A stretch of DNA of 64,000 nt from Mycolicibacterium mucogenicum DSM 44124 (GTDB lineage Bacteria; Actinomycetota; Actinomycetes; Mycobacteriales; Mycobacteriaceae): positions 3,720,001 through 3,784,000 of the forward strand of contig NZ_CP062008.1 in assembly GCF_005670685.2 (NCBI RefSeq), read 5' to 3'. Position numbers and translations under genes: made by a program. Positions 6,981 to 15,550 of this stretch are shown piece after piece (position 1 is the stretch's first letter; each line of letters opens with the position of its first letter). The notes under the pieces were generated by a model. It did no database searches. It saw only the letters and a list, made by a program, of their open reading frames with translations, and was not told where the DNA came from.

Positions 6981-8105
6981 ATGGACTTCACCTTCTCCGC
7001 GGAACAGGAACTTCTCGCCGGCGGCCTGTCCAAGTTCCTGTCCGGCCGGTACGACCTCGAAACCAGCCGGGCCGCAGCGAAATCCGGCCCCGGCTGGCAG
7101 CCCGACATCTGGCAGTCGTTCGCCGAGGAACTCGGCATTCTCGGTGCGGCCCTGCCGGAGGACGTCGGCGGTATCGGCGGCGGACCCGTCGAGGTCATGC
7201 TGATCGCCGAAGCGCTGGGTCACGCCCTGGTCATCGAACCGTACGTGGACACCGCGGTGGTCGCCGCCGGTCTGTTGCTGCGATCCGGTAGCCCGGTTGC
7301 CGGCCCCATCTTGGCGGAAATCGCCTCCGGCACAGCCGTTGTCGCGCTCGCCGCGGCCGAGGCCCACAGCGGCGACCGGTGGCAGGACGTCCAGACCACC
7401 GCCTCCCGCGAGGGCGACGCCTGGGTACTCAGCGGCGACAAGATCATGGTGGTGAATGCGCCGTTGGCCACCCACCTGCTCGTCACCGCGCGGACCGACA
7501 ACGGCGTCTCGCTGTTCCTGGTCGACATCTCCGAGCCCCGCGAGGGGCTGGTGATGCACAGCTACCGCACCGTCGACGACCGTCGGGCCGCCGACCTGGA
7601 GCTGCGCGAAGTCCGGCTGCCGGGCGACGCGCTCCTGGGCGCTGAAGGCGAGGCCTGGCCGTCGATCGCCCAGGCCCGCGACGAGGGCGCCGCCGCCGTG
7701 TGCGCCGAAGCCGTCGGCAACATGCGGAAGGTGTTGGCCGACACCGTCGAATACGCCAAGCAGCGCCAGCAGTTCGGCCAGCCGATCGGCAGCTTCCAGG
7801 CCCTGCAGCATCGCATGGTGGACATGCACATGGAGCTCGAACAGTCCGTGTCGGCGGTCTACCTGGCCGTGCTCAACCTGGAAGCCGACGCGCACACCCG
7901 GGCACGCGCGGTTTCCGCGGCCAAGGCCACCGTCGGCCGCGCCGCGCGGTTCATCGGCCAGAACGCCGTACAGTTGCACGGCGGCATGGGCATGACCGAG
8001 GAACTCGCCATCGGCCATTACTTCAAGCGGCTCACCGCCGTTCAGTACGAGTACGGCTCCACCGACCACCACGTGACCCGTTATGCAGAACTGACCCGCC
8101 GCTGA
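6981..8105 (+). CDS. Acyl-CoA dehydrogenase, second (beta) subunit
   Basis: 374 residues, starting at the base after the preceding stop, so translation is coupled. It has the acyl-CoA dehydrogenase fold with KQRQQFGQPIGSFQALQHR (flavin/adenine contact region) and a C-terminal QLHGGMGMTEELAIGHYFK. The middle-domain FAD signature of the partner (SEPEAGSD type) is missing, as in the beta subunits of heterotetrameric FadE enzymes. It probably works only with the 5748 product. The gene ends 12 bp before a perfect bidirectional hairpin. Confidence 0.9.
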   Translation: MDFTFSAEQELLAGGLSKFLSGRYDLETSRAAAKSGPGWQPDIWQSFAEELGILGAALPEDVGGIGGGPVEVMLIAEALGHALVIEPYVDTAVVAAGLLLRSGSPVAGPILAEIASGTAVVALAAAEAHSGDRWQDVQTTASREGDAWVLSGDKIMVVNAPLATHLLVTARTDNGVSLFLVDISEPREGLVMHSYRTVDDRRAADLELREVRLPGDALLGAEGEAWPSIAQARDEGAAAVCAEAVGNMRKVLADTVEYAKQRQQFGQPIGSFQALQHRMVDMHMELEQSVSAVYLAVLNLEADAHTRARAVSAAKATVGRAARFIGQNAVQLHGGMGMTEELAIGHYFKRLTAVQYEYGSTDHHVTRYAELTRR

Positions 8106-8117
8106 GTTCGGCGCGCG

Positions 8118-8154
8118 CCCTCACCTGATCCGGCCGGGCCGGATCAGGTGAGGG
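8118..8154. terminator. Bidirectional terminator between convergent genes
   Basis: Perfect 18-bp arms, CCCTCACCTGATCCGGCC and its complement, are separated by a single G at 8136, so the real loop takes a few arm bases. It starts 12 bp after the dehydrogenase stop. Its right arm contains the last codons and stop (8144-8146) of the convergent amidohydrolase gene. There is no U-tract, as is usual in mycobacteria. Confidence 0.8.
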
Positions 8155-9406
8155 TCATCTGCTTCTGCGCGTACAACTTTGCCCACTCCGCCCGCGGCCG
8201 GATCGACGTGTCGACGTCGGCGGCCTTGGCGCGCAGGGCACCTGCCGTCGCCTGTGCCTTCGGGGTCAACTTGAACGGATCCCAGCCGAAGAACCGGCAG
8301 GAGTTCTCCCAGGTGATCTTGTTGATGTCGGAGTCCGAGGCGCCGGCCGCGTTGAGTTCGGCCAGGACCTGCTCGGGCGCGTCGGGCCAGAAGCAGTCCG
8401 AGTGCGGGTAGTCGCACTCCCAGGCGATGATGTCGATGCCGATTTCGTGGCGCAACTTCAGCGACGTCTTGTCGGTGACGTAGCAGGCCAGCGAATGCTC
8501 ACGGAAGACGTCACTGGGCAGCTTGTCCCCGAAGTCGCGGCGCAGCCACTTCTGATTGGTGTAATGCCGGTCGCTGCGATCCAGATAGAACGGAATCCAG
8601 CCGATACCGCCTTCGGAGAACGCGAATTTCAGGTCCGGATAGTTGCGCATCGCCGGGCCCCACAACAAGTCCTGGGCGCACATCGCCGACACCTGCGTGG
8701 CCAGGATGATCAGGTTGTCGATCGGGGCGTCCTTGGCCATCGAGATCGCGCCGAAGCCGGTGCCGATGTGCAGACACATCACGACGTTCTCTTCGGAGAG
8801 GGTCCGGAACACCGGGCCCCAGTAGTTCTCGTCGAAGTAGCTGGGCAGGCCTTCCAGGTGCGGCAACTCGGGCATGGTCACGGCCCGGCAGCCCTTCGCG
8901 GCCACCCGGCGGATCTCACGGCACATCGCCTCGGGGTTCCACGTCGGCAGAATCGCGATCGGGATGAACCGGTCCGGGTACGCGCCGGCCCATTCGTCGA
9001 TGTGCCAGTCGTTGTAGGCCGAGACCATCACCAGGGTGGCCTCTTCGCGGTGCATGTTCAGGTGCCGGGCGGAGAAACCCGTGAAGGTCGGGAAGCACAT
9101 CGAGGCCAGGATGCCGTTGCGGTTCATGTCCCGCACCCGCTCATGCACGTCGTAGACACCGGGACGCATTTCGGCGAAGCCGGCGGGATCGCGTCCCCAC
9201 TCCTCGGCCGGCCAGGAGACCACGGCGTTGAGCCCGCTCACGCCTTGGGGGCGGCCCTGATACATCCACTGGTCGACGCCGTTGGCGTCGGTGACGACGA
9301 TCGGCGCCTCGGGCTTGTACTTGTCCGGAACGTGGTTGACGAACATGTCGGGCGGCTCCACGACGTGGTCATCGATGCTCACCAGGATCAGGTCGTCGGT
9401 ATTCAC
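8144..9406 (-). CDS. Amidohydrolase-2 family metal-dependent hydrolase/decarboxylase
   Basis: 420 residues from GTG 9406; GGAG stands 4 bases before it, which favours it over an in-frame upstream ATG at 9460. It is a TIM-barrel amidohydrolase: SIDDHVVEPP near the N-terminus (DxH-type metal site), CLHIGTG (His) mid-protein, SEGGIGWIP and WECDYPHSD near the C-terminus (Asp/His pair). Related proteins include gamma-resorcylate and aminocarboxymuconate-semialdehyde decarboxylases and many uncharacterised mycobacterial homologues found with CoA ligases and P450s. The reaction may be decarboxylation or C-C/C-N hydrolysis. It is divergent from the AraC regulator, whose probable sites lie in the shared gap. 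Confidence 0.88.
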   Translation of the reverse strand: MNTDDLILVSIDDHVVEPPDMFVNHVPDKYKPEAPIVVTDANGVDQWMYQGRPQGVSGLNAVVSWPAEEWGRDPAGFAEMRPGVYDVHERVRDMNRNGILASMCFPTFTGFSARHLNMHREEATLVMVSAYNDWHIDEWAGAYPDRFIPIAILPTWNPEAMCREIRRVAAKGCRAVTMPELPHLEGLPSYFDENYWGPVFRTLSEENVVMCLHIGTGFGAISMAKDAPIDNLIILATQVSAMCAQDLLWGPAMRNYPDLKFAFSEGGIGWIPFYLDRSDRHYTNQKWLRRDFGDKLPSDVFREHSLACYVTDKTSLKLRHEIGIDIIAWECDYPHSDCFWPDAPEQVLAELNAAGASDSDINKITWENSCRFFGWDPFKLTPKAQATAGALRAKAADVDTSIRPRAEWAKLYAQKQMTLT

Positions 9407-9420
9407 GGGACTCCAATTGC

Positions 9421-9451
9421 TCCTCACGTGCGCGGCATCCTCACGTCCGCG
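9421..9451. promoter_or_regulatory. Two 14-bp direct repeats, candidate AraC-type operator
   Basis: TCCTCACGTGCGCG (9421-9434) and TCCTCACGTCCGCG (9438-9451) differ at one base and are 17 bp apart start to start. They lie in the 75-bp gap between the amidohydrolase (GTG 9406) and AraC (GTG 9482) genes. AraC/XylS proteins normally bind direct repeats through two HTH motifs, so this is a plausible site for the adjacent regulator. A -10-like TAGTAC is at 9465-9470. Confidence 0.55.
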
Positions 9452-9481
9452 ACTGCACACTCAGTAGTACCGTCTAGAGGC

Positions 9482-10342
9482 GTGACCGTCTCTGCACTTT
9501 CGGACAGAGGTTTATCCCAAACGGCCAAGATGCCCGAGCGGCCGATGATCGAGCTGCGTCGCGGCGGCGGCGCCCTCGGCGGCAGCTATCTCTACGAGGG
9601 CGACGCGCTGATCACCGGCTGGCACTCACATGAGGTGCACCAGATCGAATACGCACTGCACGGCCTGGTCGAGGTGGAAACCGATGTCGCCCACTATCTG
9701 CTGCCGCCACAACAGGCCGCCTGGATTCCGGCGGGTCTACCCCATCAGGCAGTGATGAATCCGGACGTCAAGACCGTTGCCGTGATGTTCGATCCCAGGC
9801 TCATCTCGGACCGGTCGGATCGGGCCCGCATCATCGCCGTTTCCCCGCTGATCCGGGAGATGATGATCTACGCGTTGCGGTGGCCCATCGACCGGCCGCG
9901 GGGTGACGCCGTCTCGGACGGGTTCTTTCGCACCCTGGCACATCTCGTGGCCGAAGCGCTGGACCACGAAGCGCCGCTGAGCCTGCCCACGTCCGAGCAC
10001 CCGATCGTTGCCGCGGCAATGGCCCACACCAAAGCGCATCTGGCTTCGGCGACGGCCGAACAGGTGAGTCGCGCAGTCTCGGTATCTGAGCGGACGCTGC
10101 GGCGGCTGTTCCAGGAGAACATCGGATTGTCTTGGCGGACTTATCTTCTCAATGCCCGGATGCTCCGGGCGATGGCGTTGCTCACCGAGCCGGGACAATC
10201 GGTGCAAGCCACCGCCACCGCGGTCGGTTTCGAGAGCCTCAGCGCGTTCACCCGCTGCTTCACCCAGTTCAGCGGGCAATCACCGTCGGCGTACCGCCGC
10301 CAGACTGCCGAGACGGCGCGCTCGCCGCACGAGCCCCGGTAA
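9482..10342 (+). CDS. AraC-family transcriptional regulator, cupin + HTH
   Basis: 286 residues from GTG 9482. The N-terminal half is a cupin sensor (GWHSHEVHQIEYALHG, then PPQQAAWIPAGLPHQAVM). The C-terminal half is a two-HTH AraC domain: AEQVSRAVSVSERTLRRLFQ and VGFESLSAFTRCFTQFSGQS. An AGAGG sits too close to the GTG for a normal Shine-Dalgarno, and TAGTAC lies 12 bp upstream, so the mRNA may be leaderless. ATG 9530 is an alternative start (270 aa). The divergent amidohydrolase is the likely target, sensed through the cupin domain; ligand unknown. Confidence 0.88.
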   Translation: MTVSALSDRGLSQTAKMPERPMIELRRGGGALGGSYLYEGDALITGWHSHEVHQIEYALHGLVEVETDVAHYLLPPQQAAWIPAGLPHQAVMNPDVKTVAVMFDPRLISDRSDRARIIAVSPLIREMMIYALRWPIDRPRGDAVSDGFFRTLAHLVAEALDHEAPLSLPTSEHPIVAAAMAHTKAHLASATAEQVSRAVSVSERTLRRLFQENIGLSWRTYLLNARMLRAMALLTEPGQSVQATATAVGFESLSAFTRCFTQFSGQSPSAYRRQTAETARSPHEPR

Positions 10343-10351
10343 AGGCCGCGA

Positions 10352-10993
10352 TCACGACCGGTCGCCGTCATCCATCTCCCAGGTGCGATCACATCGCTCC
10401 TCGGTCTCGGCGATCAACTGCGCGTTCGGCTCGTCGACCGCACGAACCCAATGCTCGGCGGCGATCAGACTCCGCCCACCGGCAATGTGACGCGCGAGCA
10501 GACGCCGGCGCCGCACGTCGTCAGCGCCCCTGAGGTAGTAGAGCCGATCGATCAGCTCCCGCGCACCGGAGAAACCGTGGGACGGCAACGCCAGGTAGTT
10601 ACCCTCGGTGACCACGAGCCGGGCCGCCGCCGGCACGACCAAACCAGCTGCGACAGACTCCTCGAGCGCCCGATCGAACTGCGGCACATAGACATCAGCA
10701 GTCTGATAAGCGTCCCGCACCCGGGCCAGGGACACCACGAAGCCGGCGGCATCGAAGGTGTCGGGGGCACCCTTGCGTCCTTTGCGGCCCAGCCGCACCA
10801 GCTGCCGGTTGGCGAGATGAAACCCATCCATGGGCACCAGGGCGGCGAAATCGCGCTGAGTGGAAGTGAATTCATCGACGAGGCGCTCGGCTGCCGTCGA
10901 CTTGCCGACACCCGGCGGTCCGGTCAGACCGACGATCACCCGGCCCGACCGCTCCTCGAGCAGTCGGGCGACATCGTCGGTCAACCGGGCCAT
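10352..10993 (-). CDS. P-loop nucleoside/nucleotide kinase family protein
   Basis: 213 residues. Walker A is GLTGPPGVGKST at about 22-33. MDGFHLANRQL follows, as in uridine kinase / phosphoribulokinase / pantothenate kinase-like proteins of the YggC/fructose-kinase type. VTEGNYLALP is the strand with the catalytic or Mg-binding acidic residue. RRRRLLARHIAGGRS is a basic lid region. It phosphorylates a small molecule, probably a nucleoside, sugar or vitamin; the substrate cannot be read from the sequence. It lies 65 bp after the 25-residue lipopeptide gene on the same strand and is convergent with the AraC gene by 9 bp. Confidence 0.85.
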   Translation of the reverse strand: MARLTDDVARLLEERSGRVIVGLTGPPGVGKSTAAERLVDEFTSTQRDFAALVPMDGFHLANRQLVRLGRKGRKGAPDTFDAAGFVVSLARVRDAYQTADVYVPQFDRALEESVAAGLVVPAAARLVVTEGNYLALPSHGFSGARELIDRLYYLRGADDVRRRRLLARHIAGGRSLIAAEHWVRAVDEPNAQLIAETEERCDRTWEMDDGDRS

Positions 10994-11033
10994 GGCGCGG
11001 ACACTAGCCGCTCAGCGCGTCCAAGTCGAAGAC

Positions 11034-11061
11034 GTGACGCACCCGACGTCGAGGGTGTCAC
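11034..11061. terminator. Imperfect hairpin at the end of the WXG/HExxH operon
   Basis: GTGAC (11034-11038) pairs with GTCAC (11057-11061), and ACCC pairs with GGGT inside, with a 2-base bulge and an 8-base loop. It overlaps the stop of the small lipopeptide gene. It is a modest structure and may be a weak terminator. Confidence 0.35.
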
Positions 11062-11135
11062 CGCCGCTGCGGCTCGGGCGCACACGCCATCAACGTCACC
11101 AAAGCCGCACCCAGGATGAGGATTCGACGAATCAC
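11058..11135 (-). CDS. 25-residue lipopeptide, last gene of the WXG/HExxH operon
   Basis: A very short frame starting at a GTG that overlaps the TGA of the preceding HExxH gene (GTGA), the same coupling used by the rest of the operon. The product begins VIRRILILGAALVTLMAC: two Arg, a hydrophobic stretch and a classic lipobox ending in Cys, followed only by APEPQRR. It would be exported, lipidated and cleaved to an eight-residue lipopeptide. It resembles lysis/entericidin-type micro-lipoproteins in layout only. It may instead be the stub of a truncated lipoprotein. No family is recognised. Confidence 0.5.
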   Translation of the reverse strand: MIRRILILGAALVTLMACAPEPQRR

Positions 11136-12313
11136 GAATAGCCGCCATCGGAAGCGCCGGCGTTGGTCTCGAACGGATTTCGACGGCCGGTGAGCCTTTC
11201 GGCGCCCAGGCTGATCGCGTACTGCTTGACGAATTCGACACGTCCCAACGCGGCCCACTGTGCCGAGTGTCGCTCTTCGTGATGCAGGACACGATCGATG
11301 TCCACGTCCTGTTGGCGTGCACCGCGGGGCCCGTCGTACCACATCTGCCCCGACCCGATGATCTTGCGGAGTTGGTCGCCCGCATCGGTCGGGTGGGCGA
11401 TGTTGATCAGGAACACGTCACCGTAGGTCGACCCGGCCTGCTGGCTCAGCTGGTTCTGGATGAACCCGCCGCCCAGTCCCATCAGCATGCCGTTGGGCGT
11501 GGTGGCGAACCGTCCGCCGCTGCCCGCCAGTCGCGGAACCTGTTCGTAACTCCAGGAATTCGAAGCCTGCCGGTCGACGATGCGCTGCACCTCGTTCGCG
11601 GTGTAGGGCGTCTCGGCGAAGTCGGTGTTCGGGTTTCCCTTCGTGTAGCCGGTGCCCGCATTCAGGATGTACGTCATCAGCGCGGCCCGGCGGGCGTCGC
11701 CGGCACTGGTCCCCGCAGACAAAAGGAAGTAGGTGTTGTCGTCGCTGGGATCGCTGCTGGTCCGGTTGTTGTCGACGACGCGCTCCATGCCCGTGAGGAT
11801 GTCGAAACTCGCCGGCGTGATGTGCTGCTGCCCCGCGATGTCGACGATGACCTGGGGTGGCACACCCTTTTTCGCCGCATTCTGCAGCCACTCCCGGTGA
11901 TACCCCTCGCTCGTTCCGCTCAGCAGACCCGCGTCGCGCAGCGCGTCCTCGTACTTGTTGACGGGGTCGTATCCCGGCTCCCCGGGATCGTCGCCGATTC
12001 GGGTGTCTTTCGCCTCCGGCACATCGAACGCAATACGTTCGGCGGCCGCGCGATCGCCGTGCTCGTAAAGGAACGCGGCCGATTCGAGCTTCCCCGCGAA
12101 CACGGACATGCCCTGTCCGAGCACCTGCGCACGGCGGACAAACGCATCACCCACCTCCCGGCACGCCTGGCCGCTGTCGAGTGCGGCCACCGGATCCGCG
12201 GCGGCCGAGAGCGCGGGGCCACCATCGTCGTCGCACAGGCCGTCGGCCAGACCCGCCAACCGGGCCGCGGTGTCGCGCAACGCGGCCACGACGACGGTCA
12301 GCGGCGCGGTCAT
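11132..12313 (-). CDS. Large WXG-operon partner with C-terminal HExxH motif
   Basis: 393 residues from ATG 12313, which overlaps the stop of the upstream WXG gene (ATGA). The N-terminal 100 residues are helical and Ala-rich (MTAPLTVVVAALRDTAARLA..), like an ESX-type partner helix bundle. The middle (about 115-330) is a globular domain I do not recognise. The C-terminus holds HHEERHSAQWAALG with an HExxH zinc-protease motif (HEERH at 345-349), a downstream Tyr (KQYAIS) and a closing NPFETNAGASDGGY segment. Similar HExxHxxQW plus closing Gly-Tyr patterns occur at the C-termini of actinobacterial secreted proteins of unknown function. No signal peptide is seen; export would be through a type VII (ESX-like) route with its partner. 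The peptidase role is inference. Confidence 0.7.
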   Translation of the reverse strand: MTAPLTVVVAALRDTAARLAGLADGLCDDDGGPALSAAADPVAALDSGQACREVGDAFVRRAQVLGQGMSVFAGKLESAAFLYEHGDRAAAERIAFDVPEAKDTRIGDDPGEPGYDPVNKYEDALRDAGLLSGTSEGYHREWLQNAAKKGVPPQVIVDIAGQQHITPASFDILTGMERVVDNNRTSSDPSDDNTYFLLSAGTSAGDARRAALMTYILNAGTGYTKGNPNTDFAETPYTANEVQRIVDRQASNSWSYEQVPRLAGSGGRFATTPNGMLMGLGGGFIQNQLSQQAGSTYGDVFLINIAHPTDAGDQLRKIIGSGQMWYDGPRGARQQDVDIDRVLHHEERHSAQWAALGRVEFVKQYAISLGAERLTGRRNPFETNAGASDGGYS

Positions 12314-12825
12314 GCCAGTTCCCAACCGACCTTGCGGATCTGATAGCCGGTGTCCCGGTCGGCCGCCTCGAATTTCGCGAGCAGTAGTTTGATCGCGTTC
12401 TCGACCTCGATCCGCTTGGCTGCGATCTGCAGCGCCTGGACCGGCGAAACCCGCGCATACCAGCGGAGCCAGAAACCGGGTGTGACGCCACCGTCGTCGG
12501 CGACGTCCCACTGTGCCTCAGCGGCGTCGACTGCCTTCTTCAGGCCCGCGCGGAGCTCCGCGAGCAGCGCACCACCAGTCGCCAACGGCCCCGCCACCGC
12601 ATCGAGGTGGTTCCGATATGCGGTCTGCTCGTCGAGTGATTCGCGGCCCTGCTTCTGCGCGGCATCGGCGGCAGTGCCGGTCCAGCCCTCGGCAAGGTGG
12701 GCGAATTGCGTTCGTGCCCGGTCGATCTGAGCGTCGACACGCTGGGCCGCGGCGCGCGCATCGAGGGATGCCGTCAGCAAGGATTCCGGATCGGAATTGA
12801 GCACCTGCGACACCGTGTACGGCAT
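12310..12825 (-). CDS. WXG100-like protein, first gene of a three-gene operon
   Basis: 171 residues from ATG 12825, with GGGGGA upstream. The N-terminal 95 residues form a predicted long-helix hairpin with the turn HLAEGWTGTAADAAQ, a WxG motif at 48-50, as in ESX/EsxA-type proteins, but the protein is longer than the usual 100 residues. The C-terminal third has another helical part (SPVQALQIAAKRIEVENAIK). I see no clear YxxxD/E export signal. It is coupled by ATGA to the HExxH gene, so the two products probably form one complex. The gene is divergent from an MDR oxidoreductase gene. Confidence 0.75.
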   Translation of the reverse strand: MPYTVSQVLNSDPESLLTASLDARAAAQRVDAQIDRARTQFAHLAEGWTGTAADAAQKQGRESLDEQTAYRNHLDAVAGPLATGGALLAELRAGLKKAVDAAEAQWDVADDGGVTPGFWLRWYARVSPVQALQIAAKRIEVENAIKLLLAKFEAADRDTGYQIRKVGWELA

Positions 12826-12968
12826 GGACCATCCCCCGTTCCAATCGGTCCTTTCATTGTCCCCCACAGGCCGCAGGCCACCGGTCACGAAAATCGAATC
12901 CCTCGCTGCAAGGGTGTCACCGAGTGGGAACCCGCCTTCCGCGGACCGCGCGGGCCGACTAAGACCGA

Positions 12969-13988
12969 ATGATGACCTCCCATATCGCTCCTCCGCCGGA
13001 CACCATGCGGGCGATGGTGCTCACCGAGTTCGGCGGCCCCGATGTCCTGCATGCCGCCGAGCTGCCCACCCCGGTGCCCCGAGCCGACGAGGTGCTGGTG
13101 GAGATCGCCTGCTCCAGCGTCAACCCGGCGGATTGGAAAACCCGCGAGGGCAAGCTCTCCGCGTACATCGACTACCACTTCCCGTTCGTGCTGGGCTTCG
13201 ACCTGGCCGGCGTCATCGCTGCCGTCGGGCCGGGCGTGACGCGCTGGCAGGTGGGTGATCAGGTTTTCGGGATGTCCAACCAGCGCAGCGGTGAAGACGG
13301 CACGTACGCCGAGTACTGCCTCGCCTCTTCCGAACTGCTCGCGCCGTTGCCCGATGGCTGGGGCTACGTCGACGCCGCCGGTCTGCCAGTGGCGGGTAGC
13401 ACCGCCTACGGCGGCATGGTCGACGCCGGCGAGCTGCAGAACGGCCAGACCGTGTTGATCAACGGCGGTGCCGGCGGTGTCGGCAGCATCGCGATCCAGA
13501 TCGCTCACGCGCTGGGTGCACGGGTCGCGGTGACCTGCAGCCCGAAGAACTTCGATTACGTCTCCGCACTCGGCGCCGACCTGGCCATCGACTACCGGGG
13601 CGGCGACGTCGTGACGCAGCTGCGTGCCTGGGCTCCGTCGGGTGTCGATCAGGTGCTCGACGCCGTGGGTCTGGACACGCTGCTGCCGCACGCCGAGGAA
13701 CTGGTGGCACCCGGCGGCCGCTACGTCGAGATCGAGACGCTCATCTCGCGTGCCGACGAGGAGCGGGTGGCCCGCGCTGCCGAGCGCGGGGTGCGGATCG
13801 TCTCCAACATGATCGCGATCCAGCGCCAGCCGCAGCACCTGATGGAGTTGGCTGCACTCTGCGCCAAGGGCGCGATCCGGCCGCCCGAGACCGAGGTGCT
13901 GCCGCTGTCCAGGGTGGCTGACGCGCACCGCCTCGTCGAGGCCGGTCACGTTCGCGGGAAGGTCATCCTCGCCGTGCACACCGACTGA
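12969..13988 (+). CDS. NADPH:quinone reductase / zinc-independent MDR alcohol dehydrogenase family
   Basis: 339 residues. An N-terminal GroES-like domain (MRAMVLTEFGGPDVL.., CSSVNPADWKTREG, FVLGFDLAGVIAAVGPGV) is followed by a Rossmann domain with NGGAGGVGSIAIQIAHALGA and ALGADLAIDYR. The zinc-ligand Cys/His set of classical alcohol dehydrogenases is absent, which fits quinone oxidoreductase or enoyl reductase activity with NADPH. In-frame ATGs at 12972 and 13005 are alternative starts. It stands alone between divergent and downstream genes. Confidence 0.88.
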   Translation: MMTSHIAPPPDTMRAMVLTEFGGPDVLHAAELPTPVPRADEVLVEIACSSVNPADWKTREGKLSAYIDYHFPFVLGFDLAGVIAAVGPGVTRWQVGDQVFGMSNQRSGEDGTYAEYCLASSELLAPLPDGWGYVDAAGLPVAGSTAYGGMVDAGELQNGQTVLINGGAGGVGSIAIQIAHALGARVAVTCSPKNFDYVSALGADLAIDYRGGDVVTQLRAWAPSGVDQVLDAVGLDTLLPHAEELVAPGGRYVEIETLISRADEERVARAAERGVRIVSNMIAIQRQPQHLMELAALCAKGAIRPPETEVLPLSRVADAHRLVEAGHVRGKVILAVHTD

Positions 13989-14080
13989 GCTCTCGGGCCA
14001 AAGCCCTTGGGACGGAGATGTATCCGACCGCGGGGCTGGTAGCGTGATGCGGACGTTCAGGCCGAGGTACGGGAGGCGTT

Positions 14081-15550
14081 GTGGGGCAAGGTGAAATGCT
14101 CCATCACCTGGTGTCCGACGCCGCTGCCGCCGCACCCGATCGTCCTGCCATCATCGCCGAAGACGGCACCGTCACGACGTTCGCGCAATTCGACCGGTCG
14201 ATCGCGGCAGTCGCCGGCTGGATCGCATCCCGAACCACCCGCGGCGACCGCGTCGCAGTGATCGCCGACAACGGCCCGGACTACGCCACGCTCTACTACG
14301 CGGTGCCGCGCGCCGGATGCATCCTCGTCCTGATCAACCAGCGGCTCAGCGCCGACGAGCATGTCGCGCAACTCGCGACCGCGGCTCCCACCCTGGTCCT
14401 CGGTGACGGCCGCTATCTGGAGTCTCTGGGCCGCCCCGATGCGATCTCGTTCGACAACGAACAATGGGCTGCGGCAACGCAATCGACGCAACGTTCCGTG
14501 CCCGACGAACCCGACCCGGACGACCCGGTCTGGCTGCTCTTCACCAGTGGGTCGACGGGAACACCGAAAGGTGTTGTCCACACGCATCGTTCGATCACCG
14601 CAGCGGTCCGGGGCAGCATCGCCGGCAGGTCGGTCCGTCCCGGCGGCGTCTATCTGCTGCCGTTTCCCATGTGCCACATCGCCGGGTACAACATGCTGGT
14701 GCACCACGGCGCACAGTCGACGGTGCTGCCGGTGGCGGCATTCCGGCCCGACGCTTTCGCGGCCACGGTGAACCGGTACCGGGTGACCTCGTGTTCGTTG
14801 GCCCCGACCATGCTGCACAGCCTGTTGGCCCATCTCGACCAGACCGGCATCGAGCTGCCGTCATTGCGGGACATCGCCTATGGTTCGTCCGCCATCCCGG
14901 CCGACCTGCTGCGGCGTGCCCTCGACCGTCTCGACGTGGGATTCCACCAGGGCTATGGCATGACCGAAACCGGTGGCAACGTCACGTTTCTCGGCCCCGA
15001 GGACCACCGCGCGGGCGCCGCCGGTGATACCGCCGTGCTCACCACCGCCGGCCGTCCCCATGCCGACGTACAGATCCGGATCGCGGCGAACGGCGAGATC
15101 CTGGTTCGCGGAGACCAAGTGGCGGTCCGGTACTGGCCCGACACACCCACGACCGCCGATGGCTGGTTACCCACCGGCGACGTCGGATACCTCGACGACG
15201 AGGGCCGGCTCGTGGTGTCCGACCGGCTGAAGGACATCATCATCACTGGCGGCGAGAACGTGTCCTCGCGGGAAGTCGAGGACGTGCTGTCATCGCACCC
15301 CGACGTGGATCAGGTTGCGGTCGTGGGGGTCCCGGATCCGTATTGGGGCGAGGCGATCTGCGCAGTCGTCGTGCCCACCGCCGGCACTCGACCTGACGCG
15401 GACGCCCTGACCGCGCACGTGCGGGAACGCATCGCGGCCTTCAAACGCCCCCGGCACGTCGTGTTCGTCGACGCGCTACCCCTGACGACAAACGGCAAGA
15501 TCGCGAAACAGGTACTGCGCGAACAACTCCGGGCGCAGTTCGCCGGTTAG
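14081..15550 (+). CDS. AMP-forming acyl-CoA synthetase / CoA ligase
   Basis: 489 residues from GTG 14081, with GGGAGG upstream; ATG 14096 is an alternative. ANL-superfamily motifs in order: P-loop LLFTSGSTGTPKGVVHTH, GYGMTETGGN, LPTGDVGYLDDEGRL, a hinge DRLKDIIITGGENVSSREVE and the C-terminal catalytic Lys in TTNGKIAKQVL. It activates a carboxylic acid to the acyl-AMP and then the CoA thioester. It is downstream of the MDR gene but separated by 92 bp. Substrate unknown. Confidence 0.9.
   Translation: MGQGEMLHHLVSDAAAAAPDRPAIIAEDGTVTTFAQFDRSIAAVAGWIASRTTRGDRVAVIADNGPDYATLYYAVPRAGCILVLINQRLSADEHVAQLATAAPTLVLGDGRYLESLGRPDAISFDNEQWAAATQSTQRSVPDEPDPDDPVWLLFTSGSTGTPKGVVHTHRSITAAVRGSIAGRSVRPGGVYLLPFPMCHIAGYNMLVHHGAQSTVLPVAAFRPDAFAATVNRYRVTSCSLAPTMLHSLLAHLDQTGIELPSLRDIAYGSSAIPADLLRRALDRLDVGFHQGYGMTETGGNVTFLGPEDHRAGAAGDTAVLTTAGRPHADVQIRIAANGEILVRGDQVAVRYWPDTPTTADGWLPTGDVGYLDDEGRLVVSDRLKDIIITGGENVSSREVEDVLSSHPDVDQVAVVGVPDPYWGEAICAVVVPTAGTRPDADALTAHVRERIAAFKRPRHVVFVDALPLTTNGKIAKQVLREQLRAQFAG

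What the first reader, a model, noticed from the sequence alone, without database searches (positions are those of the whole stretch)
11058..12825. Three-gene operon: WXG100-like protein, HExxH protein and a 25-residue lipopeptide
All three frames overlap by 4 bp (ATGA, then GTGA), so they are made together. The first product has a WxG turn as in type VII secretion substrates. The second pairs an ESX-like N-terminal helical part with a C-terminal HEERH metallopeptidase motif. The third is almost only a lipobox signal peptide (LMAC plus seven residues). This could be an exported protease or toxin with a membrane lipopeptide, and I know of no description of such a set. Type VII export and protease activity are inferred.
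Basis: partly seen in the sequence, partly recalled or inferred. Interest (0 to 1): 0.72.

Follow-up and report, generated by a model that had tools for sequence, protein, structure and literature searches.

The report
Secreted-protease toxin operon missing its lipoprotein
A mycobacterial gene set for a secreted, protease-like protein and its export partner, in which the supposed tiny third gene is only the leftover of a full-size lipoprotein gene, probably the self-protection gene, that relatives still carry.

Summary
The three frames are real (minus strand, 12825-11058), but the third is not a designed lipopeptide. In 29 of 29 related loci the third gene is a full lipoprotein of 172-343 residues, and the window lacks 929-933 bp that four close relatives have. 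The 25-residue frame is the start of that gene's signal peptide fused in frame to its last eight residues; the lipobox is accidental. Gene 1 is WXG100-like. Gene 2 joins an EspC-like ESX export domain to a gluzincin-like domain that also occurs behind EspA/EspE, DUF4226 and WXG100 heads. At the 40 places closest to gene 2 the lipoprotein gene follows directly; free-standing zincins that I examined lack it. Tandem lipoproteins and displaced toxin-tail-plus-lipoprotein cassettes fit a type VII polymorphic toxin with a lipoprotein immunity protein, a kind already reported from M. abscessus prophages (PMC8092301). I file it as a new member of that kind whose window copy has lost its probable immunity gene while the toxin frame stays open. 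Export, protease activity, toxicity and immunity are inferred, not shown.

The parts
12310..12825 (-). gene 1: WXG100-like export partner, 171 aa, WTG at residues 48-50
   Evidence: a WxG-bearing frame lies upstream in 16 of 16 EspC-type relative loci visible (output cut from L015 to L018; L016 not seen)
11132..12313 (-). gene 2: 393 aa; residues 1-94 EspC-like ESX domain with YxxxD at 83-87; residues about 105-393 gluzincin-like domain, HEERH 345-349, E382 candidate third ligand
11058..11135 (-). remnant of a full-length lipoprotein gene: start of the signal peptide fused in frame to the last eight codons; 929-933 bp missing relative to four close relatives
11079..11094 (-). deletion junction: stretch of the window that blastn aligns to both sides of the extra segment of L033 and L034
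   Evidence: 16-base overlap of the two alignments

Best explanation
This is a chromosomal type VII (ESX) effector-immunity cassette that has lost its third gene. Gene 1 (WxG) and the EspC-like N-terminus of gene 2 (YxxxD) pair as the composite ESX export signal. The exported gene 2 protein carries a zinc metallopeptidase-like toxin domain that acts outside the cytoplasm, most likely on envelope or surface proteins of neighbouring bacteria. In relatives the next gene makes a membrane-anchored lipoprotein that binds the toxin domain at the outer face of the membrane and protects the producer. In the window's genome an in-frame deletion of about 0.93 kb has removed nearly all of that lipoprotein and left a 25-residue frame without a role. 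Shown: gene structure, deletion, conservation, exchange of heads, linkage. Inferred: export, zinc binding, proteolysis, target, immunity.
For: Deletion: 29 of 29 relative loci L003-L031 have a lipoprotein of 172-343 aa here, overlapping gene 2 by 4 or 1 bp; blastn against L032-L035 gives, in all four, two alignments that meet at 11079-11101 with 929-933 bp extra in the relative; the L037 protein begins like gene 3 and ends with the same tail. Linkage: of the first 41 places by E-value, 40 have the lipoprotein next door and the window is the exception. Loss not compensated: best match of a relative's lipoprotein in the own genome E 0.0036 over 71 residues; none with the family profile. Export: EspC-like head, WXG-like partner, YxxxD or YxxxE in 48 of 60 aligned rows; three EccB loci in the genome. 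Catalysis: H345, E346, H349 and E382 invariant in the 60 proteins aligned (two proteins without HExxH were not among the 60); predicted helix 339-356 with HEERH follows a strand. Polymorphic-toxin hallmarks: one tail behind four head types; in L102 the same DUF4226 head with another tail (DUF6973) and its own lipoprotein-like gene, followed by a displaced zincin tail plus lipoprotein; tandem lipoproteins in L098, L100, L101; zincin and lipoprotein adjacent on a Georgenia plasmid. Precedents: PMC8092301; immunity lipoprotein TilA against TslA, PMC10730906 (passages).
Against: No activity, export or protection has been measured. The window lineage keeps an open toxin frame without a recognisable immunity gene, which is odd if immunity is essential (dN/dS of gene 2 0.178-0.187 against its three nearest relatives in the set; this cannot tell recent loss from tolerance). 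HExxH is not universal: 2 of 121 proteins lack it, one a fragment and one with HKERH, and 1 of 29 relative loci, L025, lacks it while keeping its lipoprotein. Foldseek found no match at E 0.001 or better and no zincin among the rows shown; the C-terminal part was barely tested. Tox-MPTase4 scores 12.4 of 25 bits. In the Georgenia set none of the three proteins matches Pfam above cut-off, so an ESX head there is not shown. Some lipoproteins stand without a zincin (L096, L097, L104). One genome per species was searched, so the deletion could be confined to one strain.
Confidence: 0.6

Rival explanations
1. The lipoprotein is not an immunity protein but a working partner: an anchor, folding helper or substrate for a surface metallopeptidase that remodels the cell's own envelope.
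For: The window genome keeps an open zincin frame with no lipoprotein; L025 keeps its lipoprotein although its zincin lacks HExxH; the lipoprotein stays next to the zincin across head types.
Against: Tandem non-identical lipoprotein copies, a toxin-tail-plus-lipoprotein cassette displaced behind another toxin-like gene with its own lipoprotein-like gene, and exchange of heads are what toxin-immunity pairs show rather than housekeeping enzymes.
Confidence: 0.2
2. The exported metallopeptidase acts on eukaryotic hosts or grazing protists, and the lipoprotein only protects the producer's surface from it.
For: Pfam describes EspC as an excreted virulence factor; PMC8092301 suggests growth in infected cells for prophage cassettes.
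Against: Tandem and displaced lipoprotein cassettes fit contest between bacteria better; zincin and lipoprotein also lie together on a plasmid of a granite isolate of Georgenia.
Confidence: 0.15
3. One reading: the 25-residue product is a functional membrane lipopeptide that is part of the system.
For: Frame, GTGA overlap and a passable LMAC lipobox-like site.
Against: Full-length homologous gene in 29 of 29 relative loci; both ends of the frame match the two ends of that gene; no relative with the short form was seen among those loci.
Confidence: 0.03

Closest known systems
WXG-100 polymorphic toxin-immunity cassettes of M. abscessus prophages (PMC8092301; passages and section 11 read)
   Same: Small ESAT-6-like partner, toxin with an ESX head and variable C-terminus, immunity gene immediately downstream, some immunity proteins predicted lipoproteins.
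   Different: Those are prophage-borne; the toxin tails named in the parts I read are Tox-REase-5, TNT, Endo-NS2, Ntox-15 and an AvrE-like motif, no metallopeptidase. Here heads are EspC-like, EspA/EspE, DUF4226 or WXG100; gene 2 has no tblastn match in 50,697 phage records; the lipoprotein showed no LpqN match in Pfam; the window copy has lost it.
TslA/TilA of Staphylococcus aureus (PMC10730906; abstract and passages)
   Same: Type VII-exported enzyme toxin with small helical partners, neutralised by a lipoprotein outside the membrane; variable number of lipoprotein homologues nearby.
   Different: Phospholipase with reversed domain order, in Bacillota; its lipoprotein is of the DUF576 family.
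Tox-MPTase domains of polymorphic toxins (PMC3482391; passages)
   Same: HExxH metallopeptidase domain used as toxin tail, in part behind type VII heads.
   Different: The window protein scores 12.4 bits against a cut-off of 25 for Tox-MPTase4, over 24 residues only.
Lipocone toxins with TM or lipoprotein immunity proteins (PMC12419801; passages)
   Same: Envelope-acting toxins with membrane-bound immunity proteins; a sub-threshold wnt match (12.7 of 20.3 bits) lies on the DUF6973 domain of the neighbour gene in L102.
   Different: A different enzyme fold, and it concerns the neighbour in L102, not the window protein.

Membership tests
Type VII polymorphic toxin-immunity cassette | N-terminal ESX/WXG export domain with a small helical partner gene | tested here: met
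   EspC-like head and WXG-like gene 1, both below curated cut-offs in the window itself, clearer in relatives; predicted hairpin
Type VII polymorphic toxin-immunity cassette | same toxin tail on different heads and same head with different tails | tested here: met
   zincin tail behind EspC, EspA/EspE, DUF4226 and WXG100 heads; DUF4226 head with DUF6973 tail
Type VII polymorphic toxin-immunity cassette | candidate immunity gene directly downstream | tested here: met
   at 40 of the 40 closest related places; in the window only a remnant
Type VII polymorphic toxin-immunity cassette | toxicity neutralised by the immunity protein | not testable with these tools
   needs expression and inhibition assays
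EspC family (PF10824) | curated Pfam score | tested here: not met
   18.2 of 23.5 bits for the window protein; relatives at 85-89% identity carry PF10824 in the precomputed table
WXG100 family (PF06013, TIGR03930) | curated score and about 100 residues with central WxG | tested here: not met
   24.8 of 27.3 and 30.4 of 44.85 bits; WxG present but 171 aa; I call it WXG100-like only
Gluzincin metallopeptidases | HExxH plus a downstream Glu ligand | tested here: met
   H345, E346, H349, E382 invariant in the 60 aligned proteins; that E382 is the ligand is inference; the definition is recalled
Gluzincin metallopeptidases | zincin fold | tested here: inconclusive
   no zincin among the rows shown; aligned rows covered mainly residues 2-102
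Tox-MPTase4 (PF15640) | curated Pfam score | tested here: not met
   12.4 of 25 bits
LpqN-like lipoproteins | Pfam match of the relatives' intact lipoprotein | tested here: not met
   no LpqN match at E up to 1 in any of 5 lipoproteins scanned; one had a sub-threshold lipid-site match. That Pfam holds an LpqN model is recalled

The most novel reading that the evidence does not exclude
Mycobacteria use a family of ESX-exported metallopeptidase toxins, mounted on interchangeable EspC, EspA/EspE, DUF4226 or WXG100 heads, against rival bacteria, guarded by a so far unnamed lipoprotein immunity family; the window's lineage is a natural experiment that carries the toxin but has deleted its guard.
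Probability: 0.45. Interest if true: 0.68.

Novelty: new member of a known kind. Interest (0 to 1): 0.42.

Why it matters
It removes a false micro-gene and puts a testable reading in its place. If right, classical ESX heads (EspC, EspA/EspE), usually discussed as virulence factors, also carry toxin domains with lipoprotein guards, which links mycobacterial type VII secretion to bacterial competition as in Bacillota. Neither the zincin tail of the window protein nor the five lipoproteins scanned reached a Pfam or NCBIfam cut-off. A lineage with an open toxin frame but no guard lets one ask whether the guard is really needed.

Tried and rejected
Rejected: the third frame as a conserved lipopeptide. 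Rejected: that every zincin of this family has the lipoprotein. In the 16 loci L049-L064 tblastn found neither the lipoprotein nor the WXG partner (neighbouring frames), and in the 10 loci L107-L116 neither an ESX head nor the lipoprotein. Considered and dropped: a recalled link to M. tuberculosis Rv0963c/Rv0964c/LprP and Rv2079/LppJ. Paper searches and the third protein search (best 120 of 590 listed) gave no named link, and one passage lists Rv2079 as a predicted esterase/lipase, so I do not claim it.

Selections: alignment A1 holds 60 of the 121 proteins over 200 aa and leaves out the two without HExxH; A3 holds 57 of 99 lipoproteins; one search got the first 57 places plus 8 chosen further down, and one search scored only the top candidates in each genome.

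Full report
What is there. Three minus-strand frames at 12825-11058 overlap by ATGA and GTGA. Gene 1, 171 aa, is WXG100-like, below the curated cut-offs. Gene 2, 393 aa, has an EspC-like first 94 residues, YEHGD at 83-87 and HEERH at 345-349. Gene 3 has 25 codons.

The micro-gene is a deletion scar. In loci L003-L031, the 29 same-genus relatives that one search returned as loci, the gene after gene 2 is a lipoprotein of 172-343 aa that starts 4 or 1 bp inside the end of gene 2: 29 of 29. Blastn of window 8001-15000 against L032-L035 gives in each of the four relatives two alignments that meet or overlap at 11079-11101, with 929-933 bp more in the relative (L032 also differs elsewhere, between 13028 and 13891). 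The lipoprotein of L037 is 335 aa; its first residues match the start of gene 3 and its last residues match the end. So gene 3 is the start of the signal peptide fused in frame to the last eight codons (335 minus 25 is 310 codons). The cysteine read as a lipobox is the C-terminal one of the full protein. I found no second copy in the genome: best match E 0.0036 over 71 residues, none with the family profile.

The family. Of 396 same-genus genomes, own included, 176 have a match to gene 2 at E 0.001 or better, some over the EspC-like part only. The part shared most widely is the C-terminal domain, from about residue 105-135 to the end. Of 60 aligned proteins, window included, 28 match EspC, 9 EspA/EspE, 9 DUF4226, 7 DUF6317 and 3 WXG100 at E 0.01 or better. 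HExxH is in 119 of 121 proteins over 200 aa (one fragment and one HKERH lack it) and in 28 of 29 relative loci (L025 lacks it). In the 60 aligned rows, which do not include those two proteins, D340, H345, E346, H349, W353, E382 and D389 never vary; 48 of 60 have YxxxD or YxxxE at the ESX position.

Linkage. A lipoprotein profile of 11 rows matches in 46 of 396 genomes. I compared 65 zincin places (the first 57 and 8 others) with all 83 lipoprotein places: 44 of 65 have the lipoprotein directly downstream, among them 40 of the first 41; the window is the exception. Of the 20 others without it I looked at 14 (4, 10): frames without the lipoprotein, and without an ESX head in the 10 where heads were searched. 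So in what I examined the lipoprotein travels with the ESX-headed zincin.

Why toxin and immunity. L098 has three lipoprotein copies in a row behind one zincin, L100 two, L101 two two-domain copies; L105 has a zincin end fragment with a second lipoprotein behind the complete set. L102 shows a DUF4226 protein ending in DUF6973, then a gene with a lipobox by eye but no Pfam match, then a short DUF4226 stub fused to the zincin tail and its lipoprotein: a displaced cassette, as known for polymorphic toxins. A Georgenia plasmid carries genes of 107, 464 (zincin) and 188 aa (lipoprotein) in the same order, though none of the three matches Pfam above cut-off. Immunity lipoproteins are known for type VII toxins: TilA (PMC10730906, passages) and, as predictions, in M. 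abscessus prophage cassettes (PMC8092301, section 11). Strings of immunity paralogues that recombine are described in PMC9484751 (abstract only); that recombination made the window's deletion is my inference.

Machinery and state. The genome has three EccB loci, so ESX export is possible. Genes 1 and 2 look constrained (dN/dS 0.09-0.19 against four relatives), but that mostly measures the time before the deletion.

Literature. Nine searches listed no paper that I recognised as describing this set; most subscription papers are not held. The kind is known; this metallopeptidase-lipoprotein pair I did not find described.

Verdict. The reported lipopeptide is a deletion remnant (about 0.97 sure). 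The operon is most likely a type VII toxin-immunity cassette with a metallopeptidase tail that has lost its immunity gene (0.6). Export, enzyme activity, target and immunity are inferred.

Noticed in passing
L102:1445-4124: DUF4226-DUF6973 protein with a lipoprotein-like gene behind it, followed by a displaced DUF4226 stub fused to a zincin tail with a family lipoprotein.
   Followed up: partly
L098:4827-6604: Three lipoprotein copies in tandem behind one DUF4226-headed zincin.
   Followed up: partly
L105:2232-3415: Zincin end fragment plus a second two-domain lipoprotein behind the complete operon.
   Followed up: partly
L106:3066-5346 (Georgenia plasmid NZ_CP094290.1): Three genes in the same order outside mycobacteria: 107 aa, 464 aa (zincin), 188 aa (lipoprotein); none matches Pfam above cut-off.
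   Followed up: partly
L049-L064, L107-L116: Zincins without lipoprotein, mostly free-standing at about 250-280 aa; several lie behind a conserved gene of about 158-176 aa with a TIDPADLP motif; role unknown.
   Followed up: partly
L025 (G345): An ESX-headed relative whose zincin lacks HExxH but which keeps its lipoprotein.
   Followed up: no
L002 (own genome C1:697597-697872): A second, weak EspC-like match in the own genome with one stop inside.
   Followed up: no
L096, L097 and L104: Family lipoproteins with no zincin found in the fetched stretch: possible orphan immunity genes.
   Followed up: no
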